From Neckera pumila (taxonomy: Eukaryota; Streptophyta; Bryopsida; Hypnales; Neckeraceae): a DNA stretch of 64,000 nucleotides. The translations under genes and the position numbers were made by a program. The notes under the pieces are model-generated. The model made no database searches. It worked only from the letters and a program-made list of their open reading frames with translations, and was not told the origin of the DNA. Positions 2,457-61,239 of the stretch are shown in pieces (positions within the stretch are counted from its first letter, which is position 1; each line of letters begins with the position of its first letter). The stretch is from the NCBI GenBank assembly GCA_963969595.1, contig OZ018417.1, positions 2,544,501-2,608,500 of the forward strand, given 5' to 3'.

Positions 2457-2944
2457 TGTGGGAACACGCAATATCAATATTTAGAAATCCGGATTAGTTT
2501 AGGATCAATTCCATAAATATTTTCAAAAATTTGTAGTAGTGAAGCCGGAAACCAAAACATTTAGTAGAAACTAGGTAGTCAGGAAGTTCCGGCTTACAAA
2601 AACTTGTAGAATAGGTAAGAAACGGACTTTAGCTAGAATTCAAAAACCGGAATGGGATCCGGAGTTAGGCAACCTACGAACTAGGGGTCCGGCCTATGAA
2701 AATTAGGGATCCGTTTGCAATGGCGGCGCATTAAATGGCCGAACCAACGGGTGTCGGTCACTGGCCGGGTACTTAAGCAGATGGGCCTTTTGTTTTTTTC
2801 CTTCTTTCTTCCGCTCGAGGAGGTGTGTGTGCTTGCAGGTTTTGGAACGCGTTTTTTTTAGAAGAGGGAAAGAGTGGTGAGTTAGGCCGGATAGGAAGAG
2901 AAGGAAAGGAGGATGCCGATTGCACCGGATTGTAGGTCAAGAAG

Positions 2945-3781
2945 ATGGCGGAATCATCGGCGCAGGGGTAGAAGACTATTCCCTCTGTCAAGCTCCTGTA
3001 CCCGGTCATTTCGTCGAACTCTGCTGAGCGCTTAGAGTTAGAGAAAGATCTCTTTAAATTAGAGTGTATTGGGTTCATCCGGCACCCCTAGACAGTTTGA
3101 AGTGAAGATTTTCTTCGTAAGCTGGTTATGGGAACGCCAAACTAGTCCGAGCCGACGCCAAGAGGTCGGTGGGCCTCTTGGACTGAAGGGATGTGGGCGG
3201 AAACTTACGGGTTGAAGCAATCCGGATCCGGAAATGCGACCCGGACGGATAAGTTTTATGAAAACAAGTTCAAGAAACCGCCGCATTACAAGGAGGGTTT
3301 CACCGTTAGTGATTGTATTAATGAGTGCCATAGGCAATTACTGAATTTCTTGATTCCCATCGTATATCCGGAAAAGCCAACTAGGGTTACGGTTATAGTG
3401 GCAAATACGATTTTTAGAGCAATCGAAAGTCGGGTCGTGAACTGGACGACCATAATTCATCAGAAGGTCAAGAAGATGGCGGTGGCTATCAACAAGGCCA
3501 AGCAGAGTCCGCTCACCACTTACTTGTTCCACATGTATCATCATTTTGATTTCATGATCCCACAAGAACAAGTTGCCTATGAGACCGGAATGCAGATCCT
3601 GAAGTACGGATTCACGGAAGAGTTGAAGCGGACGGGAGAAGTGGCACTAGAAGAAGAAGAAGAAGAAGAAGAGGATCTGGAACTAAAGCCGCTGGAGAAG
3701 AAGAAGCGACAGAAGACCACCAATCCGGACGTACAAAGAACAAGTTTGGACGTGCCGGAACCAAATCTGTACCTGACCCAG
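2945..3781 (+). pseudogene. B-family element protein, 5' part (copy B1)
   Basis: First part of the B-family protein, cut at 3781 by insertion of D-minus and resumed at 11326. The ATG at 2945 matches the start in B2 (7027). A stop codon follows at 2969-2971, and others lie near 3090-3105. Several correspond to CAG or TGG codons in B2, consistent with C-to-T decay. The conserved core from 3191 on remains open: WAETYGL, a KFKKPPHYKEGF motif, LNFLIPIVYPEKP, then VVNWTTIIHQKVKKM. An acidic EEEEEEE tract and a basic KKKRQK patch follow. The core is loosely reminiscent of the 'putative plant transposon protein' domain, but this is not verified. Confidence 0.7.
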
Positions 3782-4877
3782 TGTCGTAGCACAGAAAGCA
3801 CAAAATCCTTCTCTAAGGCCTTAGTGGACCCTAAAGTGACTCGTGTATCGTTCCGCAGAGATCTCGGTGTAATTCTTCTAAATGACCGGAATGAAATGAG
3901 TTGATATACCAAAACAAACCTCAAGTACTAGTCTAGACCGGTTCCAATTCCAGTAATCCGGAACCGGAAACTCCTTTTCCACATATATATCTATCCGGTC
4001 TAGAGTATTCAACTATGTAATAAATTCGAGTTTAATCTCTGGACCAAGAGGGATCTGCAACTTTGGGCTTCAGGAAGGACGCTTAACTCCTACCCTCCGA
4101 GTTTTAACGTGTCAGAAGATCCACGATATAAACTTGAAAAAAAAACTTTGACAAGAACAACAAGAAAGAGACCTTCCTCACAACTAGACCGGATGGACTA
4201 CGCAGGTTAGCAGGTCACGCAAGAAAGTCTGAATTCTCCTAACAATTACTACAACGATAGACCACAAGACAATCCACGGCCTAGATAGAGAAGGGGCGTC
4301 AGGAAAACATAGGAGAGCTATAATACTTCTTGACAAAAGCAGCTTCTTGACAAAAGCAAGTTCTAATCCTTGCAAAGAAATCCTGTGGTATCCTGTCTAA
4401 CACGCAATCTCTCCAGGGACCGAATACTTCCTGTATTCGGGTATCACTTCCTCCTTATCCAACTCTGCACAATCTCACTGCTCTCACAATAACACGGACA
4501 AGTGCTAAAAGGTACAGCTCACGGTTGTGAATTGAAAAACTTCAATGGTATTTGCAGAAAAACTGGGAATACAAAGTATGAAAATGCTACCCGGATTAAA
4601 CCTAAAATCCGCTTTTAAATACTAAACTACCCTTCAAACTCAAAAAGCGCCTAAGGCCAAAAACAGCCAACGGAATGACACATTTCATTCCTAACTTCCT
4701 ATCAATTTTAGGCAACCTAAGCTACAATCAAAAAGCTTCCACTTAATGTAGATTTTGAATCCTAAAAATCCGGACTCAACTTGAGTCCTAACTCCTTTTA
4801 CACTAAAAATATTCCAAGTCAACTACTTGTCAAAAAATCTAGGTATGCAGCCCTACAATCACTGCCAGAACCTTCAC

Positions 4878-6539
4878 CTACTTTCTAGTCTTCTTAACTG
4901 GAGAAAACCCCGCCTTTACTGGTACCTTCCGGGCCACGGGCTTCTTTCCGGTTTGCTGTCTCGCCATCTGTTTAGACCGGACTTTGGCCTTCTCTCTGGC
5001 CGCCTTTGCCTTCGTTGCTCGGATCTCTGCCAGGGTCTGATCGGGATCTGAATACGGCTCAGAATCCTCATCGGACCCGGATTCCACTTCTTCATCATCG
5101 AAATCCTCTTCATCTTCTTCCTCTTCCTGAGCCTTGGTGAATTTCTTCTTAGCCGATGGTGGCTCAGGAATCTTTCTCTTCTGCGGGACTGGAGCAGGTC
5201 TGGCCACCTTGCTCTGAGGTGTTGCCTCTTCTCCAATCGATTTCCTGATCAGACCACTACTGGGTGAATCTGATGAAGTCTCGCGACCGGCTCCAACCTC
5301 CATCTTCACCACGGACTGCATCAGGGCCATCATCTTCTCTGCCTCGCCAAACTGCACCTTCTTCCCCGGAGTCTTGGGAGAAGACTTGGAGGGTGAGAGA
5401 CTGCTGATATTCTTCGTCTTGGTTCTCTCCTCTGGAGTAGACCCTCCTGGTCCTGTTGCCGGTTCCGATCTATGTGCCTTGGCTGGATCCGGTGCCGTCA
5501 CCTTCGTAATCTCCAAATCGTCATCCTCCGGAATTGGGTCGGGTACCTTGGTGCTTTCCACCTCAGTCTGCTGCTCCTGACTCGTCTTGGTTTCCTGGTG
5601 CTCCTTAGGTACAGCTAAGGTAGGTTGTTCGTGAGAAGTCTCACCTTTACCTGTGTATTCTGCTGCCGACTGCTGAACTGGCTCTTGATCCAGTTCCGGT
5701 CTTGGTGCAGGCACACTGTGAGGATTCACCTCACGCATCACTTCTCGCAGCTGCTCCAGCGTCGACTCCATCTTCTTATGGTAAGTGATCATCGCCAGTA
5801 GGAGCTTCTGGTGCAGCTGTCTTCCCTCCGTCATCACTTGTTGGTCAAATAAGTTAGCCTTGTTGACCACTTCACCCGGATGGGTGATAAATTCCCGGAT
5901 TCGGGAAAGGGCATCCTTCGTCTACTTGGAGAACGTCCTCTCCATCTCTACCTCTTCCGTTTTCTGGTGCAACTCTTGTTTAAGAGCAGCCACTTGGCCG
6001 GAAAGCTTCACCAATTCCTCCTTACTCTCATTCTTTTCCTTTTCCCGGTTGAGCCGGATCACTCGAGTTAAGGCTTGTGCTGGGTGGTCAACGCCCACCG
6101 TGGTGCAGATGGTCTGCATTGCACCTTGTACCACCATGTATCGTTTCCTGAAATCACTCAGATCTCGGGTGATCCTGTCCAAAGGCTCTTCCCCCCAGAC
6201 CGGATCGGTATCCTTAGTCTCTTCTCTCTCTACCGGATCCTTTCCTCTCGTTTCCTCACCCTTGTCCTCAACTTCACTCTTGTCCTCCTCCTCATCAGAC
6301 TCATCCTCATCATCTTCATCGGAGGACTCTTCCTCATTTCCGATCTCCTGATCTAAGTCAGGGACCTCAAATTCTACTAGTGCTGCGGCGGCCTCATATT
6401 CTACCTCTTCCTTTTTTGTCATCACCTCCTCCGAATGATACAGGTGATAGAGGAACGGACAGATGGCGGAAGGCTTAGCCTTCCCGACATTGTTGACTAT
6501 TTTCAACACTTGGTTCTGAATGACCAAATCCCAATCTAC
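4878..6539 (-). pseudogene. D-family element protein, 3' part (copy D-minus)
   Basis: Continuation, after the B2 insertion, of the reading frame that starts at 10654. It keeps the end of the conserved core (VIQNQVLK, then CPFLYHLYHSEEVM). A long Glu/Asp/Ser-rich stretch, a predicted coiled coil near 5925-6060 (LSGQVAALKQELHQKTEEVE) and a basic C-terminus of Lys/Arg-rich words follow. A single in-frame TAG at 5922-5924 splits it; D-plus has CAG there. The distal frame is open for 330 codons from 5870 to 4878. The acidic middle and basic tail would suit a nuclear or nucleic-acid-associated protein, but no catalytic motif is visible. Confidence 0.65.
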
Positions 6540-7026
6540 CTTCGTGTGGGAGCACGCAATGTCATTATTTAGAAATCCGGATTAGTTTAGGATCAATTCC
6601 GTAAATATTTTCGAAATTTTGTAGTAGTGGAACCTTGAAACGGAACTTTTAGTAAAAATTAGGTAGCCGGAAAGTTCCGGCTCACAAAAGTTTGTAGAAG
6701 GAGTAAGGGACGGACTTTTACCGGATCCGGAAACCGGAAGGAGATCCGGATTCCAGCAAACCTACGAACTAAGGGTCCAGCCTACGGAAAGTAGGGATCC
6801 GTTTGAAAAAGGCGGCGCATTAAATGACCGAACCAACGGATGTCAGTCACTGGCCGAGTACTTAAACGGATCATCTTCTCATTCTTCTCCCTCTTTCTTC
6901 CGCTCGAGGAGGTGTGTGTTTGCAGGTTTGGAGCGCGTTTTCTCGTAGAAGAGTGAAAGATTGGTGAGTTAGGCCGGATAGGGAGAGAAGGAAAGGAGGG
7001 TGCCGATTGCACCGGATTAGAGTTCA

Positions 7027-9069
7027 ATGACGGAAACGTCAGCGCAGGGGCAAAAGACAGTTTCGTCTGTCAAACTCTTATATCCAATCATTCCATCTGA
7101 TCCCGGGGAACGTTTAGAGTTAGAGGAAGATCTGTCCACAATAGGGTGTATAGGGTTCATCCGGAAACCCTGGACGGTGAGGAGTGAGGACTTTCTTCGG
7201 GAGTTAGTTTTTGGGGCGCTGAACCAGTTCGAGCCGACACCAAGAGGGCGGTTATTGTCCTGGACGGAAGGGATGTGGGCGGAAACTTACGGGTTAACGC
7301 AGTCCGGATCCGGAAGCGCAATCCAGACGGATAAGTTTCATGAGGGGAAATTCAAGAAGCCACCGCACCACAAGGAGGGCTTCTCCGTGAGTGACTGTAG
7401 CAATGAGCGTCATAGGAGGTTACTGAATTTCCTGATCCCCATAGTATATCCGGAAAAGCCCATGAGAGTTACGGTCACAGTCGCGAATATTATTTTTGGA
7501 GCGTTGGAAGGCCGGGTCGTGAATTGGGCAAGCCTAATTCACCAGAAGGTCAAGAAGATGGCAATGGCGGTCGAGAAGGCCAAGCAGAGTCCCGTCAGTA
7601 CGTACTTGTTCCATTTGTATCATTATTATGATTACATGACCTCGCCGGAACAAGTTGCGTATGAGACCGGAATGCAGATCCTGAAATACGGATTCACAGA
7701 GGAGTTGAAGCTGACGGGAGAAGCAACCGAAGAAGAAGAAGAAGAAGAGGAGCATCCGGAACCGAAGCTGCTGGAAAAGAAGAAACGACATAGGTTAACC
7801 AATCCGGATTCACGAAGAGTGAGTATGGACGTGCTGGAATTGAATCCAGCCCTGAACCAACCGTCGCCGGAGTATACCAATGTCTCCGACTTCTATGATG
7901 CCGGAGCCAGGTGGATGGCACAGTGTCGGAAGATGCACGCCGAGATGGCATGGGTGATCACGGGCGTCGCCAACGAATTGAATGTTGAGACGGATCAGAT
8001 CTTCAGCGAAATCCGGAAGAGACCTGATCCGGCACTACTCCAGGAGAAGGACAAAGAGATCGCACTGCTGAAGGCGGAACGGGATAACTACAAAAACAAG
8101 TTTCACTGGACGAAGGGGCAGTCGATCTCAGCCCAGAAGAAGGAGACGGATGCCCTGAAGCTCGTCCGAGATTTGAAGGGGTTGGTAGAGCAATCGGAAC
8201 ATTTGATCATCCGGTCTACGCTCTTCACAAAAAAATTAGATACCGATGGCATTGTCACCGGATCTCGAGTGTTGCAGGTCTTGGTCGATTACGAGGCCAA
8301 GATGAAGATTGTTTTGGACGAGATGAGGCAGCTGCTGAGACCTCTGGATGTGGCCAAGGACGAGTTCGGGCCGCTTCCGAATATCTTCATGGAGTCACCG
8401 GTCAAGTACAGAGCCGGAACTTCCGGAACAAAAGAAGACCCGGGTTTGAAGTCTCTCTTCAAGCTGCCCTAGGTACCTCTCTCAGATCAATTCCCGAAGT
8501 GGGAAACCGTGAGTAATTTTAGTCCTTCCTCACAGTCTCCAACGTAATCCGGAAAGATAGGGCAGAGATTGCCAATCCGGAGGAATCTCTTAGAAGGTAT
8601 GGGAACGATAAATCCGGCAAGGGAGCATCCGGATAAATTCCCCCACATGGCGGAACCATCACCAGCACGGGGGACACAGTTGATTGATTTGGGAGATCCG
8701 GCTCCAAAGGCGAGACCGGAACTCAGGCCGGAAACTCGGAAGAACACGAAGACGGAAATAGTGGAGGTCGAATTCTCGGATCCGAATGAAGAACTGGAGA
8801 TGATAGAACTTGGGAAGCAACTCAAACTCCGGAAGTCGGAGAAGCGGAAGCCGGAAGGAAAGAAGCCAGCAAAACAAGAGATCGAGGACTCTGAATCCAG
8901 TGAGTTTGAATCTGCTACTGATTCTGATGAGGATACAAATGAAGAGGAGACGTCTCGTGCGACCCGGCAGAATCCGCCTCGGGCTGCCAAGATGACGCTA
9001 GCTAAGGGTTCCGGTAAATTAACCAAGCAGGGAGCTGGGAGTTCAAAGAAGTCTCGGATGACCAAGTAG
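7027..9069 (+). pseudogene. B-family element protein, about 680 codons with two stops
   Basis: Best-preserved B-family frame. ATG 7027 is followed by 481 open codons to TAG 8470-8472. The same frame resumes, meets TAA 8545-8547, and then runs to the natural stop at 9069. B1 has sense codons at both positions, so one protein of about 680 aa was ancestral. Layout: N-terminal segment, conserved core near residues 80-230 (WAETYGL, LNFLIPIVYPEKP, VVNWASLIHQKVKKMA, STYLFHLYHYYDYM), Glu tract near 235, coiled-coil-like stretch near 335-440, acidic Ser-rich part, and a Lys-rich C-terminus ending SSKKSRMTK. C and D proteins share the core. Function unknown; possibly related to the putative plant transposon protein family or a Gag-like product. 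No zinc knuckle or DDE triad was seen. Confidence 0.7.
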
Positions 9070-9264
9070 TTCAAAGGGGATTACTTGTAGTGGTGGATTA
9101 GAATTTAGTTAGTTAGGTCCGGAACCGGAATCCTAGTGTGGGTCCGGGTTCCGGAAGTTTAGGGATAAGGACTTTCCGGTTAAATCGGGATTTCCTTGGT
9201 GTGTGTGTGTGGTTGCCCTGGTTTTGGGCTGCCCTTTGTTGTTTTTAGGGTGTTGACTTTGGTT

Positions 9265-9285
9265 TTGATTTGGGTTTTTAAGGGC
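9265..9285 (+). promoter_or_regulatory. TATA-like motif in 3' region of B2
   Basis: GGGTTTTTAAGGGCGGGC lies about 0.9 kb before the 3' end of B2, downstream of the coding frame, and is repeated in B1 near 12750. C-minus and D-plus carry TATATAAG and TATTTAAAGG at comparable distances from their 3' ends. A shared second promoter-like motif here is what an LTR with a U3-encoded ORF would need. No promoter activity is shown. Confidence 0.3.
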
Positions 9286-10166
9286 GGGCAAGTTAGTTGC
9301 CCCTCATTCCCTCCTAGTTGATATTCATTTGTATTTCATTCCCTTTTCGAAATCTAAGCTCTCGGGTATGCAGTTTGGCTTTATTAGTGTATCCAAATTG
9401 CGTGAACTTGTGGTCTGGGTGTTGGAAGGAAAGGACGGGTGAGGAGGAATCTGGATTTAGGAGAATACGGTCTAAGTCGAGAGTGTGCTATTGTAATGTT
9501 GTTGGATTGTTGACTTAGGAGCTGCGCACTGTGTCTTTAAATTACTACTAGAGTAGTCCGGATCTGAGTAGCGGGGAAGCGAGTCCGGTTGTCAAGCCGT
9601 GCGGAGGTAAGCATCCGCCCAAGGAAGTTTCCACCTGTCCGGAAGATCTGCCAACCTCAGAATTCATCCAACCTCTAGAAAGATCGCACTCCCTTATACT
9701 TAACTCTGAGATCTGTCGTTGTAGTTAGGGGGAGTGAAGTATTCCTGAGTGACATGCTTTCCGGAATTACCATCCGGGAGCTGTGAGGATCCGGATCTTC
9801 TCATCTTGCTACAACCCCTTTGAGTACTTGAGGTGTTTTGATTTGTGTTTGTTAGAATTGTAGGAGAACAACGAATGGTGAGTCCCTACCCCTCTACAAG
9901 ACCAATAGTGGACCCTTTGATGGTAAAACAGAGGTATAGAAAACCGGATTGGAAGCAGAGACGTAAACCGGATTCCGGATAGTTTATGATCCGGATTGTG
10001 AAGGAAGCCGGAAAGAGAGAAAGTAAGTGAGAAGAAAAGAAAGATAGAAAAGCCGGACAACTAGAACATACTACATAGAATCCGGAAATTCCCTGGGACG
10101 ATATTTTGTGTTATCTTGGCACATTTTTGTGTTAAGGATACTTACGCCTAGATTGCACGTACGACA

Positions 10167-10654
10167 CTTCCGGTCTCCTGACAACGCGCCAAAGACTGTA
10201 TTGGCGAGTGTCAGAGAGACCCGGCTTGGCCTTTCCGGGTTAAGAATGGCCAAGACGTATTGCAACAAACGCCTCTCTCTCTCATTGACGCAATCTGTAA
10301 CCGCGAATCCATCCTTCTTGCTAATGGGGGTATGAAACTTACCCACCGTGAATTGGTCCTTCCGGGATGCGTTGCCTTCGCCCTCCCAGTCGAACCGGTA
10401 CCCCTCCTCCACATCTCCGCCGTCTACTTCTTGGGTTTTGTACGGACCGTGGTTGCGGCTTGAGCCGGTGCTCCCGAACTCAACTCCGCCACTATTGCTT
10501 CACTCCGGAAATCCCACGGTCTGATCAGGAAGCCGGCGCATCCCATTTGCTCCAAGTCCTCCTTCAGCTCCGCCATCTCCTTGTCATCCTTGGGTAATCG
10601 CGGCGTCACGTAGCGCAGCGAGATGGTCGCTCCTCTGCTGTGACTTGCGGCCAT
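10167..10654 (-). pseudogene. D-family element protein, 5' part (copy D-minus)
   Basis: Start of the D-family protein on the minus strand, ATG at 10654 (MAASHSRGATISLRYVT). It stops at TAG 10424-10426 in a context identical to the TAG at 16321 in D-plus. A 1-nt deletion relative to D-plus near 10400 shifts frame, after which the conserved core follows (KFHTPISKKDGFAVTDCVNE, LLQYVLAILNPERPSRVSL). The frame is then cut by B2 at 10166 and resumes at 6539. Comparison with B and C proteins places a Trp codon at the shared TAG. Confidence 0.65.
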
Positions 10655-11325
10655 ATCTCTCGTCGATTAGATGGAACCGGTCTACTGTCGGGTGTTGGTA
10701 AGACTAGTGATCCTCACGGCTCACTCTCTCTCTCCTTTCAGCTGGAAGGTATTAACTCTAAGCTCAGGCGCCAACAACCTTCTCTCTCTCTCAATAACCT
10801 TCCAGCACTCTTGTCTGCAGTCTTGTCAACTCAAAACACCAATACTACCTCTCAGACCGGAAATCAATAATCGCGTACGCTGTACAATTCTCCGTCAGGG
10901 CAGGAAATCACAAGTGACCAACCTTTGGACAGATAGGATCTAAAAGAGTCAATCCCAGCAGCTCTTAGTAATTACCCTAATTAAGGCTTTGCCCATTAAT
11001 TTTGCCCGTTTAGGATCCCTGTTTAACTAATGATTAGAACGTTCCCGTTGTTCCCTATGGTTAAGTAGGTCACCGTTGGATGGCGGTTTCCTGTTATCCT
11101 TTTCCTGACCCGGTCTAAGCAAAGTATAATTCCGGTTCCTTGTTTCCGGTACATTTAGTTGGCCTTTACATTGATTCCGGATCAATCCATTTTCGGTTTC
11201 CGGTTCTAAACATTAGACGGTCTATAACTATCTAAGAATCGAAAAAATTTACTACTAAGAAGAATATTATTCCTTCATTTATATTCTAATATAGTAAAAC
11301 TAGATTTTCATGTTCCGACACCCAG

Positions 11326-12537
11326 CCATCACCGAAACCTTCCAATGTATCCTACTTCTATGAGGTCGGAACCCGGTGGATGGTGCAGTGCCGGAAGATG
11401 CACGCTGAGATGGCAGAGGTGAACACGGGCTTCGCTAGGGAGTTAAATGTTGAGACGAATTAGATCTTCAACGAACTCCGGAAGAGACCAGATTCGGCAC
11501 TACTCCAAGAGAAGGACAAGCAGATCGAGCTGTTTAAGGCAAACCGGGATCACTACAAGAACAAGTTCTACTAGATGGAGGGGCAGTCGCTCTCAGCCCG
11601 GAAGAAGGAGACGGATGCCCTGAAGCTAGTTAGGGATTTGAAGGTGTTGGTAGAAGAACCAAAACATCAGATCATCCGGTCCGCGCTTTACACAAAGAAA
11701 CTCAAGAATGACGGCATTGTTATCGGATCCAAAGTGCTGCAAGTCCTGGTCAATTATGAGGCCAAGATGCAGATCGTTTTGGACAAGATGCGGCAGCTAC
11801 TGGGTCATTTGGATGTGGCCAAGGACAACTTCGGGCTACTTTCGGATATCTTCATAGAATCCCCGGCCAAATATGGAGCCGGAACTTCCGGAACAGAAGA
11901 GGACCCAGGTTTGAAGTCTCTGTTTAAGATGCCCAAGGTACCTTCCTCAAGTTAGTTTTTGAAGTGGGGCACGGTAAATACTTTTGTCCCTTCCTCACAA
12001 TCTCCGAGTGAAACTGGAAAGGCTAGACAGAGATTGCCAATCCAAAGGGATTTGTTAGAGGGTTTGGAGACGATAAATCCGGCAAGAGAATACCCGGAGG
12101 GATTCCCTCATATGTGGCAACCGTCACCAGCCCGGGGTAAAGAAGTGATTGACTTAGGAGATCCGGCTCCAGAGGCGAGACCGGAACCCAGGCCGGAAAC
12201 CCGGCTGAACAAGAAGACGGAAATAGTGGAGGTCGAAATCTCAAATCCGGATGAAGAACTCGAGATGATGGAACCTGAGAGGCAACTGAAACTCCGAAAG
12301 TCTGAGAAGCAGAAATCGGAAAGCAAGAAGTCGGTGAAGCAACAGATTGAAGGCTCCGAGTCTGGTGAGTTTGAGTCAGGCTTAGAATCTGAGGAAGATA
12401 CGGAGGAGGAGGAGACGTCTCTTGCGACCGGTCAGAATCCGCCTCCAGCCTCCAAAATGACGCCAGCAAAGAGTTCCGGTAAGCCAACAGCCAAACAGGG
12501 AGCCGGAAGTTCAAAGAAATCTCGGATGGCCAAGTAG
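11326..12537 (+). pseudogene. B-family element protein, 3' part (copy B1)
   Basis: Resumes the B1 frame after D-minus. It is collinear with B2 from about codon 280 to the C-terminus, which ends SSKKSRMAK. Stops at 11461 (TAG for CAG), near 11573 (TAG for TGG) and 11953-11955 break it. The segments 11575-11955 and 11959-12537 lie in one frame and were originally continuous. The coiled-coil-like region, acidic Glu-rich tract and Lys-rich tail match B2. Confidence 0.68.
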
Positions 12538-13637
12538 TTAGAAGATGACTACTTGTAGAGGTGGATTAGAATTTGGATAGTTTTGTCCTGGAACCGGATT
12601 CCAAGCGTGGGCCCGGTTTTCAGAAACTTAGGGATAAGGACTTCCCGGTTTATTCGGGATTTCCTTGGTGTGTGTGTGAGGTTGCCCCGGTTTGTGGGTA
12701 GCCCTTTTTGCTTTTAGGGTGTTGACTTTGGCTTTGTTTTGGGTTTTTAAGGGCGGGCAAGTTAGTTACCCCTCATTCCTTCCTAGTGGATATTCAATTG
12801 TATTTCATTCCCTTTTTGAAGTCTGAGCCCTCGAGTATGCATTTTGGCTTTATCAGTGTATCCGAATTTTGTTGATTTGTGGTCTGGATGTTGGAAGGAA
12901 AAGACGAGTGAGGAGGAATCCGGATTTAGGAGAATACGGTTTGAGTCAAGAGTGTGCTATTATAATGTTGTTGGATTGTTGACTTAGGAGCTGCATAGTG
13001 TCTTTAAACTGCCAGAAGAGTAGTCCGGATCACAGAGTAGCAAGAAAGCGAGTTTGGTTGTCAAGCTGTGCGGAGGTAAGCGCCCACCCAAGGAAGCCTC
13101 CACTTGTCCGGAAGATCTGCCAACCTCAGGATTCATCCAACATCTAGAAAAATCACACTCCCATATTTATTTTGGACTCTGAGATCTGTCGTTGTAATAG
13201 GGGAGAGTGAAGTATTCCTGAGTGACCTGCTGTCCGGAGTTGCCATCCAGAAGTTGTGAGGATCCGGATCTTCTCGTCTTGCTGCAACCTTTTGAATACT
13301 CGGGTGTTGTTATTTGTGTTTGTTAAAATTGTAGGAAGAACAAGAGTGGTGAAGTCCCTACCCCCTCAAAAGATCAACTACTGAACCCTCTGAAGGTAAA
13401 ACAGAGGTATTGAAAACCGGATTGGAAGAAGAAACGTAAACTGGATTCCGGATAGTTTATGGTCCGGATTGTGAAAGGATCCGGAAAATGTTGAGTAGGT
13501 GAGAAAAAAGAAAGATAGAAAAGCTGGATAGCTAGAATATGCTACATATAATCCAGAAATTCCCTGGGATGATATTTTGTGTTATCTTGGCACATTTTTG
13601 TGTTAAGGATACTTACGCCTAGATTGCGCGTACAACA

Positions 13638-14111
13638 CTTGATTTAGCGGAGGATTGTTAAAAATTCAGAGTGTTTTAGGTACCAGTAGAGGGACTTACA
13701 TGAACTAATTTTCAGTGCAATCCTACGTAGCAACGTCCAATGGTTTTATTGAACATCATTGTTGACATAAAAATATGGGTTGTCAACTATAACATCCACA
13801 GAAATACGTTCCAAAAAATAGTGAAACCATCCCCTAAAACACGGGTTTCTTACAGTGCATTTTCAACGCCTTTGTCCAACACTTGTTCCTACGTGAATCA
13901 CGCACTTCCCATCCGCCTGCTATGCCATATCATCAGTGGCCACGCATTTATGAAATCCTAGGCAATGCAAATCAATTACTACGTAGGTCATCCATCCATT
14001 TGACATTGAAAATAATAGTACTAACCTCCTCCGCCTGCTGCGCTCTCTGCACTATCGACACTCTTGTCAGTTGTCTATGTTCAAGTGCTTGCGCTCAAGA
14101 ATGTCACTGAC
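13638..14111. other. Intergenic, nothing recognised
   Basis: Begins with the right-hand CTTGA duplication of B1. The rest has only short frames on both strands and no repeat or RNA gene I can support. Confidence 0.5.
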
Positions 14112-14400
14112 TTCAGGGTTGTTACATCAAGCGTTCCAGGGTCACTGGACGTCCCGGACGGACGGACAGTCCGTGTCGATTTGCACAGAAATCAAAACCA
14201 TGGAGCTGGGCGATTGGGCGGGGACTTAAACTCTTAAAGGATTGGGCGGGGACTTAAAGACGGGGCGTGGACTTAAGGGATTGGGGCGTGGACTTAAGGG
14301 CGGGGACATCAAGACAAGGCGGGGATTTAAGGATAAAGTCAACTATATGTTGACTACATTGGACAGGCAGAACCTCAACCGGACGTCTTGGACGGATAGG
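14112..14400 (+). repeat. GC-rich dispersed repeat, family E copy 2
   Basis: Second copy of the repeat at 1930-2456, same orientation. It adds a local reiteration of GGGCGGGGACTTAA-type words near 14215-14330. Its right edge is the left end of element C-plus. Two separate TG...CA elements therefore sit at the end of E copies. Confidence 0.6.
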
Positions 14401-14674
14401 TGTCACAACCGGATTTTTGGTTTTCCTTTGCTTACCTAAATATTGGAACGGAAACAGGTAATTAGGATCCGGATCCTATTAGAGGGGCAAAAGAAAACTG
14501 AAGATAGACAACACTAATCCAGTAAGGAGAAAAAATGGATCTGATCCGGTCAGAACGTTAGTGTTCAGGAGCGGAATCACATCCGGATCGTACCTCAGAT
14601 CGGATTAGGGTTGGACCAGATTGATATAGACTAGACCGGAAAAGCTCATGATGACCAGCCAGGGGTTCTGGAAC

Positions 14675-14682
14675 TATATAAA
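14675..14682 (+). promoter_or_regulatory. TATA box of C-family element
   Basis: TATATAAA about 275 bp from the element's 5' tip, upstream of the reading frame. The matching sequence in C-minus is TATATAAA on the minus strand at 40111-40118. Both are followed by a pyrimidine-rich CACTCCTTTACT stretch, consistent with a core promoter. Sequence-based only. Confidence 0.5.
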
Positions 14683-14977
14683 GGTTGGTCGTCCTCATTT
14701 TCACTCCTTTACTTCCCTCAAGTTCTGGAGCTGACTTTGAGCACTTTTACGCCTCCGTTTGCGCCAGAGCCGTTGTGTGTGTGTGAACTTCAGGTTGGGT
14801 ACGTCAAAGTGTGTAGGAGACGTAGAGATTGTGTGGGTTGCAGGTTTTGTGTTGTTTTTCGATTGAGATCGGACGAGAGGAAGTGAGGATCGGGACGTGC
14901 GGCTAGGAGAGAGTGAGGTAGCGACCTCTAAGGATCTAGTAGCCGGTTGTGTCCAGGCCTTAGCTGCATAAGAGTAG

Positions 14978-15426
14978 TCCGGGAGCGCCCAGTTCCTCCT
15001 TCGACGTCAAACTCCAGAATGTAGTTCCGGTCATCCCTACCGCGGAACCGGCAAGGACCAAGCTCATGGACGATCTCAACGCGATGGGCTGTCTGGTGTT
15101 GATGGATAACCTTGGGGATTTAGGGTGGAGCGGATGGTAAGACAGCTGAAGTTCAAGGTGTCGAATGAACTCGATAAGACACTCTGAGGCCACCCGATCG
15201 AATGGGAAGAAGAAAGGTGGAGGGAAGTTTACAACTTCCGGATGGGAGGTTCCGGCATGGCTGGACGGAAAGCCGAATTCATCCATGACAAGTTTCATGG
15301 AGAGCTAAGCAACAAGGATGAATATGCGGTCGCGGATTGCAAGAGCAACCGGCACCGCCATCTTCTTGAGTTTTTGATTTTGATCGTTCACCCGGAGAAG
15401 CCTACGAGGTTGATGATGACCATCAA
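14978..15426 (+). pseudogene. C-family element protein, N-terminal fragment (C-plus)
   Basis: Collinear with the C-minus frame. It has the pieces LMDDLNAMGCLVLMD, a WREVYNFRMGGSGMAGRK stretch, and HDKFHGELSNKDEYAVADC, followed by FLILIVHPEKPTR. Frame is lost near 15110 and again near 15190 (TGA). Truncated by D-plus. Confidence 0.6.
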
Positions 15427-18400
15427 TGTCGGAACATGAAAATCTAGTTTTACTATATTAGAATATAAATGAAGGAATAATATTCTTCTTAGTAGTAAAT
15501 TTTTTCGATTCTTAGATAGTTATAGGCCGTCTAATGTTTAGAACCGGAAACCGAAAATGGATTGATCCGGAATCAATGTAAAGGCCAACTAAATGTACCG
15601 GAAACAAGGAACCGGAATTATACTTTGCTTAGACCGGGTCAGGAAAAGGATAACAGGAAACCGCCATCCAACGGTGACCTACTTAACCATAGGGAACAAC
15701 GGGAACGTTCTAATCATTAGTTAAACAGGGATCCTAAACGGGCAAGATTAATGGGCAAAGCCTTAATTAGGGTAATTACTAAGAGCTGCTGGGATTGACT
15801 CTTTTAGATCCTATCTGTCCAAAGGTTGGTCACTTGTGATTTCCTGCCCTGACGGAGAATTGTACAGCGTACGCGATTATTGATTTCCGGTCTGAGAGGT
15901 AGTATTGGTGTTTTGAGTTGACAAGACTGCAGACAAGAGTGCTGGAAGGTTATTGAGAGAGAGAGAAGGTTGTTGGCGCCTGAGCTTAGAGTTAATACCT
16001 TCCAGCTGAAAGGAGAGAGAGAGTGAGCCGTGAGGATCACTAGTCTTACCAACACCCGACAGTAGACCGGTTCCATCTGATCGACGAGAGATATGGCCGC
16101 AAGTCACAGCAGAGGAGCGACCATCTCGCTGCGCTACGTGACGCTGCGATTACCCAAGGATGACAAGGAGATGGCGGAGCTGAAGGAGGACTTGGAGCAA
16201 ATGGGATGCGCCGGCTTCCTGATCAGACCGTGGGATTTCCGGAGTGAAGCAATAGTGGCGGAGTTGAGTTCGGGAGCACCGGCTCAAGCCGCAACCACGG
16301 TCCGTACAAAACCCAAGAAGTAGACGGCGGAGATGTGGAGGAAGGTGTACCGGTTCGACTGGGAGGGCGAAGGCAACGCATCCCGGAAGGACCAATTCAC
16401 GGTGGGTAAGTTTCATACCCCCATTAGCAAGAAGGATGGGTTCGCGGTTACAGATTGCGTCAATGAGAGAGAGAGGCGTTTGTTGCAATACGTCTTGGCC
16501 ATTCTTAACCCGGAAAGGCCAAGCCGGGTCTCCCTGACACTCGCCAACACAGTCTTTGGCGCGCTGTCAAGAGACCGGAAAGTAGATTGGGGTTTGGTCA
16601 TTCAGAACCAAGTGTTGAAAATGGTCAACAATGTCGGAAAGGCTAAGCCTTCCGCCATCTGTCCATTTCTCTATCACCTGTATCATTCGGAGGAAGTGAT
16701 GACAAAAGAGGAAGAGGTAGAATATGAGGCCGCCGCAGCACTAGTAGAATTTGAGGTTCCTGACTTAGATCAGGAGACCGGAAATGAGGAAGAGTCCTCC
16801 AATGAGGACGATGAGTCTGAGGATGATGAAGATGAGAGTGAGGCTGAGGACAAAGGTGAGGAAACAAGAGGAAAGGATCCGGTAGAGAGAGAAGAGACTA
16901 AGGATACCGATCCGGTCTGGGGGGAAGAGCCTTTGGACAGGATCACCCGAGATCTGAGTGATTTCAGGAAATGATACGCGGTGGTACAAGGTGCAATGCA
17001 GACCATCTGCACCACGGTGGGCGTTGACCACCTAGCACAAGCCTTAACTCGGATGATCCGGCTCAACCGGGAGAAGGAAAAGAATGAGAGTAAGGAGGAA
17101 TTGGTGAAGCTTTCCGGCCAAGTGGCCGCTCTTAAACAAGAGTTGCGCCAGAAAACGGAAGAGGTGGAGATGGAGAGGACGTTCTCCAAGCAGACGAAGG
17201 ACACCCTTTCCCAAATCCGGAAATGCATCACCCATCCGGATGAAGTGGTCGACAAGGCTAACTTATTTGACCAACAAGTGATGACGGAGGGAAGGCAGCT
17301 GCATCAGAAGCTCCTACTAGCGATGATCACTTACCATAAGAAGATGGAGTCGACGCTGGAGCAGCTGCTAGAAGTGATGTGTGAGGTGAATCCTCACAAT
17401 GTGCCTGCACCGAGATCGGAACTGGATCAAGAGCCAGTTCAGCAGTCGGTAGCAGAATACACAGGTAAAGGTGAGATTTCTCACGAGCAACCTACCTTAC
17501 CTGTACCAGAGGAGCACCAGGAAACCAAGACGAGTCAGGAGCAGCAGACCGAGGTGGAAAGCACCAAGGTACCCGACCCAATTCCGGAGGATGACGATTT
17601 GGAGATTACGAAGGTGACGGAACCGGATCCAGCCAAGGCACATAGACCGGGAACCAGCAACAGAACCAGGAGGGTCTACTCCAGAGGAGAGAACCAAGAC
17701 GAAGAATATCAGCAGTCTCTCACCCTCCAAGTCTTCTCCCAAGACTCCGGGGAAGAAGGTGCAGTTCGGCGAGGCAGAGAAGATAACGGCCCTAATGCAG
17801 TTCGTGGTAAAGACGGAGGCTGGAGCCGGTCGCGGGACTTCATCCAGTTCACCCAGTAGTGGTCTGATCAGGAAATCGGTTGGAGGAGAGGCAACACCTC
17901 AGAGCAAGGTGGCCAGACCTGCTCCAGTCCCGCAGAAGAGAAAGATTCCTGAGCCACCGTCGGCTAAGAAGAAATTCACCAAGGCTCAGAAAGAGGAAGA
18001 AGACAAAGAGAATTCCGATGATGAAGAAGAGGAATCCGGGTCCGATGAGGATTCTGAACCGTATTCAGATTCCGATCAGGCCCTGACAGAGACCCGAGCA
18101 ACAAAGGCGAAGGCGGCCAGAGAGAAGGCCAAAGTCCGGTCTAAACAGATGGCGAGACAGCAGACCGGAAAGAAGCCCGTGGCCCGGAAGGTACCAGCAA
18201 AGGCGGGGTTTTCTCCAGTTAAGAAGACTAGAAAGTAGGTGAAGGTTCTGGCAGTGATTGTAGGGCTGCATGCCTAGATTTTTGACAAGTAGTTGAGTAG
18301 GAATATTTTTTAGTGTAAAAGGAGTTAGAACTCAAGTTGAATCCGGATTTTTAGGATCTAAGATCCACATTAAGTGGAAGCTTTTTGACTGTAGCTTAGG

Positions 18401-19333
18401 TTGCCTAAAATTGACAGGAAGTTAGGAATGAAACGTGTCATTCCTTTGGCTGTTTTTGGCCTTAGGCGCTTTTTGAGTTTGAAGGGTAGTTTAGTATTTA
18501 AAGGCAGATTTTAGGTTTAATCCGGGTAGCATTTTTCATACTTTGTATTCCCAGTTTTTCTGCAAATGCCATTGAAGTTTTTCAATTTACAATCGTGAGC
18601 TGTACTTTTTAGCACTTGTCCGTGTTATTGTGAGAGCAGTGAGATCATGCAGAGTTGGATAAGGAGGAAGTGATACCCGGATATAGGAAGTATCCGGTCT
18701 CTGGAGAGATTGCGTGTTAGACAGGATACCACAGGATTTCCTTGCGAGATTAGAACTTGCTTTTGTCAAGAAGCTGCTTTTGTCAAGAAGTATTATAGCT
18801 CTCCTATGTTTTCCTGACGCCCCTTCTCTACTTAGACCGTGGATTGTCTTGTGGTCTGTCGTTGTAGTAATTGTTAGGAGAATTCAGACTTTCTTGCGTG
18901 ACTTGCTAGCCTGCGTAGTCCATCCGGTCTAGTTGTGAGGAAGGTCTCTTTCTTGTTGTTCTTGTCAAAGTTTTTTTTCAAGTTTATATCGTGGATCTTC
19001 TGACACGTTAAAACTTGGAGGGTAGGAGTTAAGCGTCCTTCCTGAAGCCCAAAGTTGCAGATCCCTCTTGGTCTAGAGGTTAAACTCGAATTTATTACAT
19101 AGTTGAATACTTTAGACTGAATAGATATATATGTAGGAAAGGAGTTTCCGGTTCCGGATTACTAGAATTGGAACCGGTCTAGACTAGTACTTGGGGTTTG
19201 TTTTGGGGTATCAACTCACTTCATTTCGGCCAATTAGGAGAATTACACCGAGATCTCTGCGGAACGATACACGAGTCACTTTAGGGTCCACTAAGGCCTT
19301 AGAGAAGGATTTTGTGCTTTCTGTGCTACGACA
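15427..19333 (+). mobile_element. Element D-plus, complete TG...CA element
   Basis: Starts TGTCGGAACATGAAAA and ends TGCTACGACA, matching both tips of D-minus in opposite orientation; about 3.9 kb. The left neighbour is C-plus sequence and the right neighbour is a tandem repeat. The immediate flanks (ATCAA and CATAG) do not form a duplication, so the junction was rearranged after or during insertion. It encodes the D-family protein (16093-18238) in sense and has about 1.1 kb of 3' non-coding sequence. Confidence 0.8.
16093..18238 (+). pseudogene. D-family element protein, about 700 codons, broken
   Basis: ATG 16093. In-frame TAG at 16321-16323, shared with D-minus. TGA at 16972-16974 stands where D-minus has an Arg codon. 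A 1-nt insertion near 17650 shifts frame until about 17760, after which the C-terminal part runs to TAG near 18236. The order of parts is conserved: N-terminal segment (LEQMGCAGFLIRPWDFRSE), core (KFHTPISKKDGFAVTDC, VDWGLVIQNQVLKM, CPFLYHLYHSEE), very acidic Glu/Asp tract near residues 225-275, coiled coil, Gln/Glu-rich part, and basic tail ending SPVKKTRK. No enzyme motif is visible. The basic tail and acidic tract are reminiscent of a nuclear or Gag-like protein. Confidence 0.68.
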
Positions 19334-22218: not shown

Positions 22219-23182
22219 TGTCGCAGCACAGGGCAAGCAATTTCCCAGTTATACTACCAAAAATCACTTTAAAGTATAACAAAGTGACTCTAAAGATCAA
22301 ACCCGCGAGATTCTGTGAAGTAGATAGCCTTATTTAGTCTCTACGCTAAGTCAGTACCTATATTTCCTCTTCCGGTTCAAACACAACAACCGGAAATACA
22401 ACAACAACAAGAACTATAATCAGACCCTCTTCTCTTTCTCCGATCCAGTCCACTTTCCGATCTGGTCTGATCAACTCACATCCACTCTTACTACCATCCG
22501 GTTTAGTTTTACCTCTGTTTCACCATCAGAGGGTTTGCCCCTTGTTTTTGAGAGCGGTAGGCCCGCCGCTCCTTCCGTGAATTATAGTGGCTGAAGACCC
22601 ACTTTGTCCTTCTCCAATTCTCTATACTAATCCGGACCCGGTTTGATCCTTCACAACAACCCAGAAAACTCTCCGGATTACCGGTCACACAAGGACCCCC
22701 TGTACGATCCTTCCATACTACAACAACCTTAGCGCCACGTTTCGTCTATGCGAAGCCAGGCGGCTGCAAGTGAGCCCATCCGTTCCAACATCCACTAAAG
22801 TTCTTCCGTTTGCCCACTGAGGCAGCGAGTTCTCTCAGGAGATCGAACACTCAACCGGATTTACCACCCAAGAGTTCTAGCACGACTAAGGAATCCCTCC
22901 CTATCCGCCTAGCCTAACAACGACTGTCTCGCCCGGAATCCTAAACTTTAAAGCTGCTGAGGAACTGGAATCCACTCTCAACACTTTCGCAACCCGCTCA
23001 CCTACACATAAGATCAAAACAAGAACGCCAAAGGGAGAAATCACACCCACACTAACAAGCGCCTTCCTAACTCCTCACCACACAACCCTGCCGCACACGG
23101 GAGAGACACGCAACAAGAGGCCAAGAGAAGACGTATGCGAAAATGAGGTGAAAAAAACTCCCAGCTCCCAAGCAGGGGCTGA

Positions 23183-23190
23183 CTTATATA
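23183..23190 (-). promoter_or_regulatory. TATA-like motif in 3' region of C-minus
   Basis: TATATAAG on the minus strand, downstream of the coding frame and about 0.97 kb from the element's 3' tip. It is followed by AGTCAGCCCC and a CT-rich stretch. Its position parallels TATA-like motifs in B2 and D-plus. Confidence 0.35.
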
Positions 23191-23331
23191 CCACTTGACT
23201 ACAAAGCAAAAAGGACCTCGGAAATCCGCGCTGGACATCCGGATCCGATCCTAACCGGCCAGACCGGATAAACATCCGATCCGGTCCTAACTATCTTATA
23301 AATACTTTACATTTCTAACTAACTTCCTACC

Positions 23332-24949
23332 CTACGCTCCAATTCCCCCGCCCAATGTAGGACTTCTAGGTTCCTCGGGCAGTTGGTTGAACGCATCCGC
23401 CAAGTTCTGGCTCCGCTCCTCGATAGCTGGATCCGGAAGATCTGACCCGGGCGATGAATCTAACTGAATTGGTTGCCCCGGCCCAGGTCTCCGGTTACTC
23501 TTCCTTGACTTGGGTGTCTGATCCTTACGCTCCCCCGGATTCGATCCTCCCGCTGCAAACAAATCCGGCAGCGAAATGTCAGAGAGGTGGATTTTCGGGA
23601 AAACAAGGATTTGGTCAGCTTCCAACTGCTGACGTCCATCCGGTCGGCCGCCTCTCGTGCTGCCACTAAGGATGCTTCCACCCGATCGGTGAAGTTACTG
23701 AGGATCCGAACTATCCGGGAACCGGATACCTTCTTCTCTTCATGCACCCCTTTGTCAAATAATGCCGCCTTGACTTTGGTGGATCCGGACTCTCCAAGAG
23801 TGCCCTTCACCGACTCAGCCACCTTCCGGGTTGCCTCCGCCATCTCTCGGACTGCTGCCTTGTCTTCCCTAAGGGTTACCATGTCAGCCCTCAGAGCGTC
23901 GACTTCCCCCTGAAGCCGACGGATCTCTGCTTCTTGTTATCGGTTCTCATCCGGATCGGCCAAGAATTGCCCCACCTTACCCGGCAATTCACTATCGACC
24001 GGTGCACCCACCAGCTCCCCGATAGTGATGAGAGTTCTCCGCTTGACCTCCCAGTCCGCTCGTATCCCATCCAGGACAACCATCAACTGGTTGAACGGGT
24101 TAGTTGGATCCTCAAGATCCGGCATCTCAACATCCGGTCCCTGTTCTAGTGTGGACCGGGGGTTCGAGGGGGTTCCTCTCTTCCGAGGAGGCGTCGTCTT
24201 CTATCGCTTCCTTTGCCGGGACGGCTCCTCCTCTTCCTCCTCTTCTGTCCCGAGTTCGGATCCGGTTTGCTCCTCCATCTCGTCATCCGAACCCAACTCT
24301 CCGTACTTCAGGATAGACTCCTAAACGCTCCACGTCTTCTCCTCCGTTTGAATGAGGAGTTGGTTCTGCCGGTAGAGGTGGAAAAGGTAGGGACTCAAAG
24401 GAGTGGCCCTACTCTTTCCGATCCTCGTCACCAACTGGGACACCAGATCGGAAAAGATCCGAGCCCAATTTACCTTCCGTTCCCCGCTCAGGGAACCGAA
24501 AATGGTATTGCCGAAGAACATTGTCACCCTCGTCGGCTTCTCCGGGTGGACGATCGGAACCAGGAACTGGAAGAGGTTACGATGCCGGTCGCTCTTACAG
24601 TCTGCGACCACGTACCTGTCCTTGTTGCTCAGCTCCCCATGAAACTTATCATGGATGAACTCGTCCTTCCTTCCGGCCATACCGGAACCTCCCATCCGGA
24701 AGTTGTAAACTTCCCTCCACCTTTCTTCTTCCCATTCGGTCGGGCGGCCCCGGAGAGTATTGTCGAACTCGTTTGACACCTTACACTTGATCTCCCTAAC
24801 CATCCGCTCCTCCCAAAATCCCCAGGGTTTATCCATCAGGACTAGGCACCCCATGGCGTTGAGATCCTCCATGAGCTCAGTCCGGGCCGGTTCCTCCATA
24901 GGAATGACCGGAACTATCTTCCGGAGCTTGACGTCGGAGGAGGAACTGG
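23332..24949 (-). pseudogene. C-family element protein, main part
   Basis: Minus-strand frame entering from 39803+ and broken at 24949 by the CACTA insertion. It has LMEDLNAMGCLVLMDKPWGF, a WEEERWREVYNF motif, HDKFHGELSNKDRYVVADC, FLVPIVHPEKPTRVTM and VNWARIFSDLV. Acidic and coiled-coil-like stretches follow. The same frame crosses TAG 24321-24323, a TAG near 24195 and TAA 23937-23939. A 1-nt shift appears to occur in the tail, which ends in a Pro/Gly-rich segment at 23332. In the part right of the CACTA element the frame is open back to TGA near 39876 without an ATG, so the start is unclear. It shares its core with B and D proteins. Confidence 0.6.
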
Positions 24950-24961
24950 CACTAGTAGAAA
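24950..24961 (+). repeat. CACTA left terminal inverted repeat
   Basis: CACTAGTAGAAA, exact inverse of 39788-39799. The similarity weakens after 12 bp. Confidence 0.9.
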
Positions 24962-25600
24962 AGGGGGTGTTTTGTAATCGGAGAAACAATGACTATCTCT
25001 CTTGTATGACTGAATAGTGACTCCGGGCATACAGAAGGGCTTTGAAAAAAACTGACCCAGTAATACAGTCATATAGTAGTCATAGAAATGAGTGCTGGAT
25101 GAAGAATGGATGAAAGGTAGGACAATAAGTTCTTCACTGACAACTATTCATATACCTCCTACCAGCATTGATGATGTGGATTCAGTATTTTAGACTGTAG
25201 TTGTTGAAGGATGAGGGGAATTGATATATGTCTACTAAATAACTATGTTATGACTGTGTGAATGACAACGTGGAATTTAAGGAAAATAGTGACATTTCTT
25301 TGTCCAGCTGGGCATTTGTGACTAGGATTATTAGTGATGTAGCTTAGTTGTTAGTCCTTTTTGTAGTGGTTATCCTTGTACGACCAGAGTCATGTGGGAC
25401 TAGATGTGCTACAATAATCACTGCAACATAACTGCACTTCAGTCATTCTTGAGTAGTTATGTGTTGAATAGTGGATTTAGAACATTTGTGACTAAAGCCA
25501 TATACAAATAGAATACGAGTACATAGAAGGTAATTTTGAGCATTTATATTATTGTCATGGTATTAGATGTAAGCTGAAATGTTGTCTGTATTCTATGCTT
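24962..25600. promoter_or_regulatory. CACTA left subterminal region
   Basis: About 0.6 kb without coding features, with scattered short TGACT/AGTCA words in both orientations (ATGACTGAATAGTGACT, ACAGTCATATAGTAGTCATA). In En/Spm elements such subterminal repeats bind the TnpA-type protein. Matching words are dense at the right end (39640-39790) and in the internal MITE. Binding is inferred by analogy. Confidence 0.5.
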
Positions 25601-26367: not shown

Positions 26368-26702
26368 GCATGATTATGACATGGATGATTAGTAGTGAAG
26401 GTGTAGGAAGTGGAAGAGAAAAACATAGACATACTATTTGTGAAAACAGCAATTGCTAGCTCTTTCTTCGGTACAGAAGTGGTATACACATGACTAGGCC
26501 ACTTCTTTGATTTCTTCGTAGTTTGGACAATCAATTCTATACATCAAGATTGACAAATGACTAGCCACTACAATGTTAACAAGAAGGACTAGTACAATGA
26601 ATCCCTTGCAATCACGGACATGTGCATATTCTCATTTAAAATGCAAGGACGCGCATTGAAAGTCTCTATACACTTTCATTGACATTAGCATGCACAAACT
26701 CA

Positions 26703-39799: not shown

Positions 39800-40110
39800 T
39801 GGGCGCGCCCGGTCTGGTCTTACGCAGCTGAGGTATGGACACTAGACAACCACTGGACCCTTTCCAATCGTTACCTCACTCTCTCCTAGCCGCACGTCCC
39901 GTTCCTCACTTCCTCTCGTCCGATCTCAACCGGAAAGTACACACAAAACCTGCAACCCACACGTTCTTTACTCTTTCTACACTCTCAGACCCACCCAGCC
40001 GGAAGCGCACATACATACAACGCCTTTGGCGCGGACGGAGGCGTAAAAGTGCTCAAGGTCAGCCCCAGGGCTCGAGGGGAGTAAAGGAGTGAAAATGAGG
40101 ACGACCAGCC

Positions 40111-40118
40111 TTTATATA
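40111..40118 (-). promoter_or_regulatory. TATA box of C-minus
   Basis: TATATAAA on the minus strand, about 275 bp from the element's 5' tip, matching the motif at 14675 in C-plus. It would drive the C-family frame, now cut off from it by the CACTA insertion. Confidence 0.5.
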
Positions 40119-40393
40119 GTCTCAGGACCCCTGGCAGGTCATCATGTCCTTTTCCGGTCCAGTTCTCTATCGATCCGGTCCAGCCCTAATCCGATCTGAG
40201 GTGAAATCCGGATGTGATTCCGCTTCTGAATACTAACATTCTGACCGGATTAAATACAGTTTTCTCTTTACTGGATTATCGTTGCCTATCCCTAGTTTCC
40301 TTCTGCCCCTCTAATCGGATACGGATCCTAATTACCTATTTCCGTTCCATTATTTAAACAATTAGAAGAAAACCAAAAATTCCGGTTGCGACT

Positions 40394-42625: not shown

Positions 42626-42714
42626 TTACAATCATACCATATGTTTTTTTAATTTTCAAAAATGAATGTAAAACTAAAAAAATAAGACCTATTCCAATCT
42701 TTTGGGATCATATT

Positions 42715-61192: not shown

Positions 61193-61239
61193 CTGAATGG
61201 CAAAACAAGAAAAATATGAAAAAAAAAAAGAAACATTAC

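What the first reader, a model, noticed from the sequence alone, without database searches (positions are those of the whole stretch)
2457..19333. Three related families of TG...CA elements that carry a large sense ORF but no LTR pair, polymerase or transposase
Seen: families B, C and D (3.6-3.9 kb) have TGT...ACA tips, 5-bp duplications (CTTGA, CCCAG, CTTCS, YTTTC), a 5' TATA region, one 680-715-codon frame with a shared core (WxExY..., LxxLIPIVxPEKPxRVT, VNWxxxIxxxV), an acidic middle and basic tail, then about 1.1 kb of 3' non-coding DNA. Known: 5-bp duplications with TG/CA tips mark LTR-retrotransposon integration, and TGT tips also occur in Ginger-type DNA elements. Inference: they may be solo LTRs of a large retrotransposon whose U3 carries an accessory gene, or non-autonomous elements of an undescribed type that encode their own structural protein.
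Basis: partly seen in the sequence, partly recalled or inferred. Interest (0 to 1): 0.88.

Follow-up and report, generated by a model that had tools for sequence, protein, structure and literature searches.

The report
Solo LTRs carrying a conserved gene
These DNA elements, probably from a plant, are leftover end repeats of Ty3/gypsy retrotransposons, and unusually the repeat itself carries a large conserved gene of unknown function, so many copies of that gene, intact or broken, stay behind when the rest of the retrotransposon is lost.

Summary
B, C and D are TGT...ACA units of 3.6-3.9 kb, nested in one another; a fourth family, E, is also in the window. They are LTRs. For C, genome-wide patterns gave 375 LTR starts, 43 polypurine-tract/LTR and 32 LTR/primer-site junctions (reversed controls 1, 0, 0). 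Two-LTR elements were found for C (three, two with a shortened LTR) and E (two), with gag and integrase, and in C also RT and RNase H, between the LTRs. Of 20 C copies read in full, 18 stand alone and two are the LTRs of one element. Seven of seven D copies checked have 5-bp duplications, but no D with a polymerase was found. The LTR gene is under purifying selection (dN/dS 0.19-0.23 between B and C), clear in variants shared by copies and weak in singletons. E LTRs hold two TATA boxes, before and after the gene, so the gene probably lies in U3 with its own promoter (inferred). The protein's helical core models confidently, without a Pfam, PDB or viral-fold match; at least 880 relatives exist. 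Layout resembles MMTV sag; function is inferred, not shown.

The parts
2457..13637 (+). B solo LTR (pieces 2457-3781 and 11321-13637), interrupted by D1; duplication CTTGA at 2452-2456 and 13638-13642
3191..3904 (+). B LTR-gene frame, 237 codons as listed; its last part (from 3782) runs into the D1 insertion
3782..11320 (-). D1 LTR copy (pieces 3782-6544 and 10167-11320), interrupted by C; duplication CCCAG at 3777-3781 and 11321-11325
6545..10166 (+). C solo LTR, 3622 bp; duplication CTTCG/CTTCC
7027..8472 (+). C LTR gene, 481 codons open here (686 and 680 codons from the ATG in 2 of 20 other copies)
6859..6866 (+). C candidate promoter P1 (TACTTAAA), 168 bp before the ATG
   Evidence: motif and conservation with B only
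9275..9282 (+). C candidate promoter P2 (TTTTTAAG), about 0.2 kb after the ORF stop, inside a 30-nt block identical in B
14401..15426 (+). E LTR, 5' part, cut off at D2; gene starts at about 15.0 kb
14675..14681 (+). E promoter P1 TATA box (TATATAA), present in 4 of 4 copies that cover it
15427..19333 (+). D2 LTR copy, 3907 bp, no target duplication
16333..17859 (+). D2 LTR-gene frames (213 and 292 codons)
22219..24980 (-). E LTR copy, 5' truncated; gene core in the frame 24321-24989
23184..23190 (-). E promoter P2 TATA box (TATATAA) after the gene, 2 of 2 copies that cover it
39800..40392 (-). E LTR 5' part, 83% identical to 14402-14991

Best explanation
B, C, D and E are LTRs, mostly solo where checked, of one lineage of Ty3/gypsy retrotransposons with about 3.3-3.9 kb LTRs and a 5.9-6.0 kb gag-pol internal region. 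SHOWN for C and E: two-LTR elements exist, with 5-bp target duplications, primer site, polypurine tract, gag and integrase (RT and RNase H shown for C only; no protease hit was found). B follows as C's close subfamily; D is assigned by likeness. SHOWN: the LTR carries a sense gene of about 560-690 codons that was under purifying selection in the replicating lineage. INFERRED: the gene sits in U3, driven by its own promoter P1, while P2, after the gene, makes genomic RNA starting in R. Reverse transcription copies U3 to both ends, so each insertion has two gene copies, and LTR-LTR recombination leaves a solo LTR that still holds the whole gene. INFERRED, weakest: the protein (helical core, acidic disordered linker, long helices of coiled-coil type, basic tail) is an accessory nucleic-acid- or chromatin-associated factor that helps the element in trans.
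For: Two-LTR element on C6: L023 and L025 differ by 0.9% against a 5.2% mean between copies, share a deletion of about 70 bp near LTR position 137-207, and have outer duplications ACTTT/ACTTT. L023 is followed by TGGCGCCGCTGCCGGGG. Pfam hits between them: Retrotrans_gag 1.5e-9, zf-CCHC 1.2e-6, RVT_1 3.9e-20, RT_RNaseH 2.3e-34, Integrase_H2C2 6e-13, rve 6.7e-13. Second C element, C3:45.3 Mb: primer site, about 5.95 kb internal, polypurine tract; the 3' LTR matches for 1137 bp at 96.0% and then ends. Third, C3:31.27 Mb: shortened 5' LTR, primer site and tract. E element, C2:40.27 Mb: LTR 3321 bp, internal 5901 bp, GCACT on both sides, gag 64% and INT 73% identical to C; another at C1:6.4 kb with primer site and tract, outer duplication not established. 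Genome-wide C: 375 starts (up to 1 mismatch), 43 PPT/LTR and 32 LTR/PBS junctions (up to 3 mismatches); reversed controls 1, 0, 0. Single copies: 15 of 20 C copies have perfect 5-bp duplications, one has one mismatch, two are an inverted pair with exchanged flanks, two are the C6 element. D: 6 of 6 by script plus one read from the same output. Selection: dN/dS 0.19-0.23 B versus C-type copies, 0.25-0.28 within C. Shared variants per site-copy at codon positions 1/2/3.0153/.0143/.0413; singletons .0080/.0069/.0101; Fisher P 0.003. Promoters: strict sense TATAWAW in E pieces occurs only as P1 (4 of 4 pieces) and P2 (2 of 2), shuffle mean 0.1-0.4 per piece.
Against: No D copy with primer site or pol was found: the one candidate D pair (C8:10.86 Mb) proved to contain a solo copy and did not verify as a pair, and the D junction search did not complete. 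In B, C and D, P1 and P2 are weak TATA variants. No transcript ends were available, so the gene could instead lie in R or U5. Singletons are not fully neutral: third positions carry 160 of 389, P 0.0015 against one third, though C-to-T and G-to-A changes dominate singletons. Between B/C, D and E synonymous sites are near or at saturation, so most of those dN/dS values could not be computed. No function was tested, and the core matched no known fold.
Confidence: 0.85

Rival explanations
1. The gene is in the R/U5 part: a single promoter near the LTR 5' end starts the genomic RNA, and the gene is the first cistron of that RNA, upstream of gag.
For: A TATA-like motif precedes the gene in all four families; the plant survey describes 5' forward extra ORFs in some lineages (PMC6317226, passages).
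Against: A second TATA box follows the gene in E, with weaker equivalents in B/C and D.
Confidence: 0.2
2. Independent single-gene DNA transposons (Ginger-like or new) whose TGT...ACA ends and 5-bp duplications only mimic LTRs.
For: Most copies checked are single with perfect duplications and encode one protein; Ginger ends follow TGTNR (PMC2836005, passages).
Against: Paired copies around primer site, gag, integrase and polypurine tract in C and E; only about 5 bp of inverted ends, whereas Ginger1 TIRs are about 40-270 bp and Ginger2 TIRs about 50-180 bp (PMC2836005); no transposase match for the LTR gene.
Confidence: 0.04
3. The LTR gene is a recently captured passenger without a role in the element.
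For: No known domain in the core; most C copies are broken.
Against: Purifying selection along the mobile lineage; shared by four families here and by at least 880 relatives elsewhere.
Confidence: 0.06

Closest known systems
MMTV sag (superantigen gene in the LTR of a mouse betaretrovirus)
   Same: A sense accessory gene carried in the LTR, hence present at both ends of an insertion (PMC11998498 calls Sag LTR-encoded; passages seen).
   Different: Unrelated host, element class and protein; no homology claimed. MMTV's U3 and promoter layout is recalled, not tested.
Plant Ty3/gypsy OTA superclade (Athila, Tat, Ogre, Retand)
   Same: Large LTRs and extra ORFs are common there; 5-bp duplications are the rule in plant LTR elements (PMC6317226, passages). 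The primer site looks like the tRNA-Asp type (recalled).
   Different: [quoted passage not shown] here the ORF is inside each LTR. No additional RNase H hit between RH and INT. Lineage not tested by a tree.
Phygy (Physcomitrella Ty3/gypsy clade)
   Same: Polyprotein coding sequence fills nearly the whole internal region (PMC6317226, passage).
   Different: The survey describes Phygy elements as rather short with an NCGN insertion preference; here LTRs exceed 3 kb and the duplications vary.

Membership tests
Ty3/gypsy LTR retrotransposon (families C and E; B as C's subfamily) | Two direct LTRs, TG...CA, flanked by target duplication | tested here: met
   C6 pair ACTTT/ACTTT; E pair on C2 GCACT/GCACT
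Ty3/gypsy LTR retrotransposon (families C and E; B as C's subfamily) | Primer site after the 5' LTR and polypurine tract before the 3' LTR | tested here: met
   complementarity to a tRNA was not tested (tRNA-Asp recalled)
Ty3/gypsy LTR retrotransposon (families C and E; B as C's subfamily) | gag, RT, RNase H and integrase, with INT after RT and RNase H | tested here: met
   met for C (no protease hit); for E only gag, zinc-knuckle and INT pieces were tested
Ty3/gypsy LTR retrotransposon (family D) | Internal gag-pol with primer site and polypurine tract between D LTRs | tested here: inconclusive
   one candidate pair did not verify; junction search unanswered
Solo LTR | Single LTR with matching 5-bp duplication and unrelated flanks | tested here: met
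   B, C (one mismatch) and D1 in the window; 15 of 20 C copies; 7 D copies of 7. Not met by D2 in the window
Ginger-type DNA transposon | Terminal inverted repeats of 40 bp or more | tested here: not met
   ends read by eye share only about 5 bp
Chromovirus | Chromodomain at the integrase C terminus | tested here: inconclusive
   L025:2763-3182 has no Pfam hit at E <= 0.01, but PMC6317226 warns that plant chromodomains are poorly covered by CDD profiles (passage)
OTA superclade (Athila/Tat) | RT-RH-INT phylogenetic placement | not tested
   no reference set at hand
Transposase_28, Athila ORF-1 or putative-plant-transposon-domain protein | Pfam match of the LTR gene | tested here: inconclusive
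   none of these listed for the 14 members of A1 at E <= 10, nor among the 25 families shown for the 40 members of A3 at E <= 1 (31 matched, 6 not shown); a resemblance of motif order to the plant domain is recalled only

The most novel reading that the evidence does not exclude
A plant Ty3/gypsy lineage has moved a complete gene, with its own promoter, into U3, so each LTR-LTR deletion leaves a working gene behind. Hundreds or more of solo LTRs would then form a dispersed supply of a new protein family acting in trans (for example against silencing, or in nuclear import or integration) for the few remaining full-length elements.
Probability: 0.35. Interest if true: 0.8.

Novelty: new variant of a known kind. 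Interest (0 to 1): 0.6.

Why it matters
LTRs are usually treated as regulatory DNA and solo LTRs as inert scars. Here the LTR itself encodes a selected protein family with no recognised fold, and 24 of 150 scored E matches list an open frame of 546-563 codons with no stop in the matched part (whether those 24 are solo or paired was not checked). If solo copies are expressed, deletion of the retrotransposon body would not remove its accessory function. Such elements could also be mis-annotated as host genes or as unknown DNA transposons.
Full report
The window lies at G000:C10:2544501-2608500 in a 339.5 Mb genome of 18 contigs. Its CACTA tnp2 transposase (3.4e-33), DUF4218 and ankyrin proteins suggest a plant; the species is unknown.

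Anatomy. Self-comparison and junction reading give nested insertions. B (2457-13637, duplication CTTGA) is interrupted by D1 (minus, 3782-11320, CCCAG), which is interrupted by C (6545-10166, CTTCG/CTTCC). D2 (15427-19333) lies downstream without a duplication and cuts off a copy of a fourth family, E (starts 14401; other copies at 24980-22219 and 40392-39800 on the minus strand). D1 and D2 are 99.5% identical over the first 1 kb and about 95% over the rest, a mosaic that suggests gene conversion.

Are they LTRs? A DNA search with the C ORF scored 40 of 429 candidates. In each of the 20 the targeted copy is a unit of 3.55-3.65 kb; several lie in or beside further C fragments. Fifteen have perfect 5-bp duplications and one has a single mismatch. 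The script misplaced two ends and counted 13; reading one search gives 15. L019 and L021 are an inverted neighbouring pair with exchanged flanks and 99.8% identity, as expected from an inversion or conversion between them. L023 and L025 are the two LTRs of one element: they differ by 0.9% against a mean of 5.2%, share a deletion, have outer duplications ACTTT/ACTTT, a primer site after L023 and a polypurine tract before L025. A further C copy, L020 (duplication AAAGC), is nested in that internal region. ORFs between them match gag, zinc knuckle, RT, RNase H and integrase. L026 shows the same integrase end next to a diverged LTR start, 71% identical to C.

Two more C elements came from pairs of starts: C3:45.3 Mb (about 5.95 kb internal; 3' LTR matches for 1137 bp at 96.0% and then ends) and C3:31.27 Mb (5' LTR shortened to about 0.6 kb, then primer site and, 6 kb on, the tract and a second LTR start). 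Genome-wide patterns gave 375 LTR starts (up to one mismatch), 43 PPT/LTR junctions and 32 LTR/PBS junctions (up to three mismatches), with 1, 0 and 0 for the reversed patterns. The different mismatch limits make any ratio rough. Of the 100 starts listed, 90 were not yet in hand and I read the upstream flank of 60 of these, on C1, C2 and part of C3: 1 of 60 had the polypurine tract (my script turned L068 the wrong way, and its flank has no tract on reading). That is lower than 43 of 375; 23 of the 43 junctions lie on contig C11, which the 60 do not sample. Either way most C units are not next to a polypurine tract.

Family E. A protein search with the E core scored 150 of 2283 candidates, 86-92% identical apart from the query itself; 24 of 150 rows list an open frame of 546-563 codons without a stop in the match. 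By eye I noticed two same-strand pairs 9.22 kb apart. The C2 pair shows LTRs of 3321 bp, an internal region of 5901 bp, a primer site, a polypurine tract, gag and integrase 64% and 73% identical to C, and GCACT on both sides. The C1 pair shows the primer site (one letter different) and the tract; its right end was not found in the stretch fetched. An E copy in L012, with a C copy nested in it, stands alone with flanks GTAAG/ATAAG, one mismatch.

Family D. 40 of 332 candidates were scored. Six of six copies checked by script have perfect 5-bp duplications, and a seventh (C8:10.86 Mb) reads ACAGA on both sides; the same-strand neighbour that made it a candidate pair did not verify. D is therefore assigned by tips, duplications and gene only.

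The gene. Core identity between families is 35-42%, except B/C at 74-76%. dN/dS is 0.19-0.23 between B and C-type copies and 0.25-0.28 within C; E against two C copies gives 0.24-0.31 at dS of 2 or more, and the other between-family values are saturated. Among 21 C copies, variants shared by at least two copies sit at third positions far more often (.0413 per site-copy) than at first (.0153) or second (.0143); singletons are much flatter.0080/.0069/.0101. Counting events after dropping L025 and L021: shared 66/62/144, singletons 123/106/160, Fisher P 0.003. Selection acted on the replicating lineage and is weak after insertion, as expected for a mobile-element gene rather than a host gene.

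Promoters. In E, strict TATAWAW occurs on the sense strand only at about position 275 (4 of 4 pieces covering it) and after the ORF (2 of 2 pieces); shuffles give 0.1-0.4 per piece. Weaker equivalents exist in B/C and D. The model of a U3 gene with P1 and genomic RNA from P2 is my inference.

The protein. A 14-row alignment gave an AlphaFold2 model of the core at pLDDT 85.5, pTM 0.82, with no PDB or BFVD match at E <= 0.001. A relative of 560 residues shows core, disordered linker, long helices (299-454) and disordered tail, mean pLDDT 66.1, pTM 0.45. The profile search found 880 relatives at E <= 0.001; of the 120 listed, 119 carry no Pfam annotation and none has a name other than 'hypothetical protein'.

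Literature. A plant survey (PMC6317226, passages) places extra ORFs 5' or 3' of the polyprotein and reports 93.4% 5-bp duplications. PMC7251063 (passages) notes high solo/full ratios in Physcomitrella and solo LTRs with or without duplications. MMTV Sag is described as LTR-encoded (PMC11998498, passages). The seven answered searches named in Tried and rejected showed me no plant case.

Noticed in passing
G000 contig C11 (12.3 Mb, 3.6% of the genome): Family C is strongly concentrated on this small contig: 15 of 40 scored C copies and 23 of 43 PPT/LTR junctions, binomial P about 4e-12 and 4e-22. It may be a sex or other low-recombination chromosome that keeps full-length elements.
   Followed up: partly
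L019/L021 (G000:C5:25.95 Mb): Two C copies in inverted orientation, 99.8% identical, with exchanged flanks: probably an inversion by recombination between solo LTRs.
   Followed up: partly
window 3782-11320 and 15427-19333: D1 and D2 are 99.5% identical over the first 1 kb and about 95% afterwards: a sharp conversion or recombination boundary.
   Followed up: partly
window 19291-19785: Array of 45-bp tandem repeats directly after D2.
   Followed up: no
window 21046-22210 and 40360-43412: Dispersed family of degenerate 60-300 bp direct repeats with a recurring GAGAATGCGGGTC motif.
   Followed up: no
window 26700-29773 (minus): CACTA-type DNA transposon remains: tnp2 Transposase_21, weak Transpos_assoc and DUF4218.
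   Followed up: no
window 61184-62212 (minus): NLI-interacting-factor-like phosphatase gene (PF03031, 5.5e-14).
   Followed up: no
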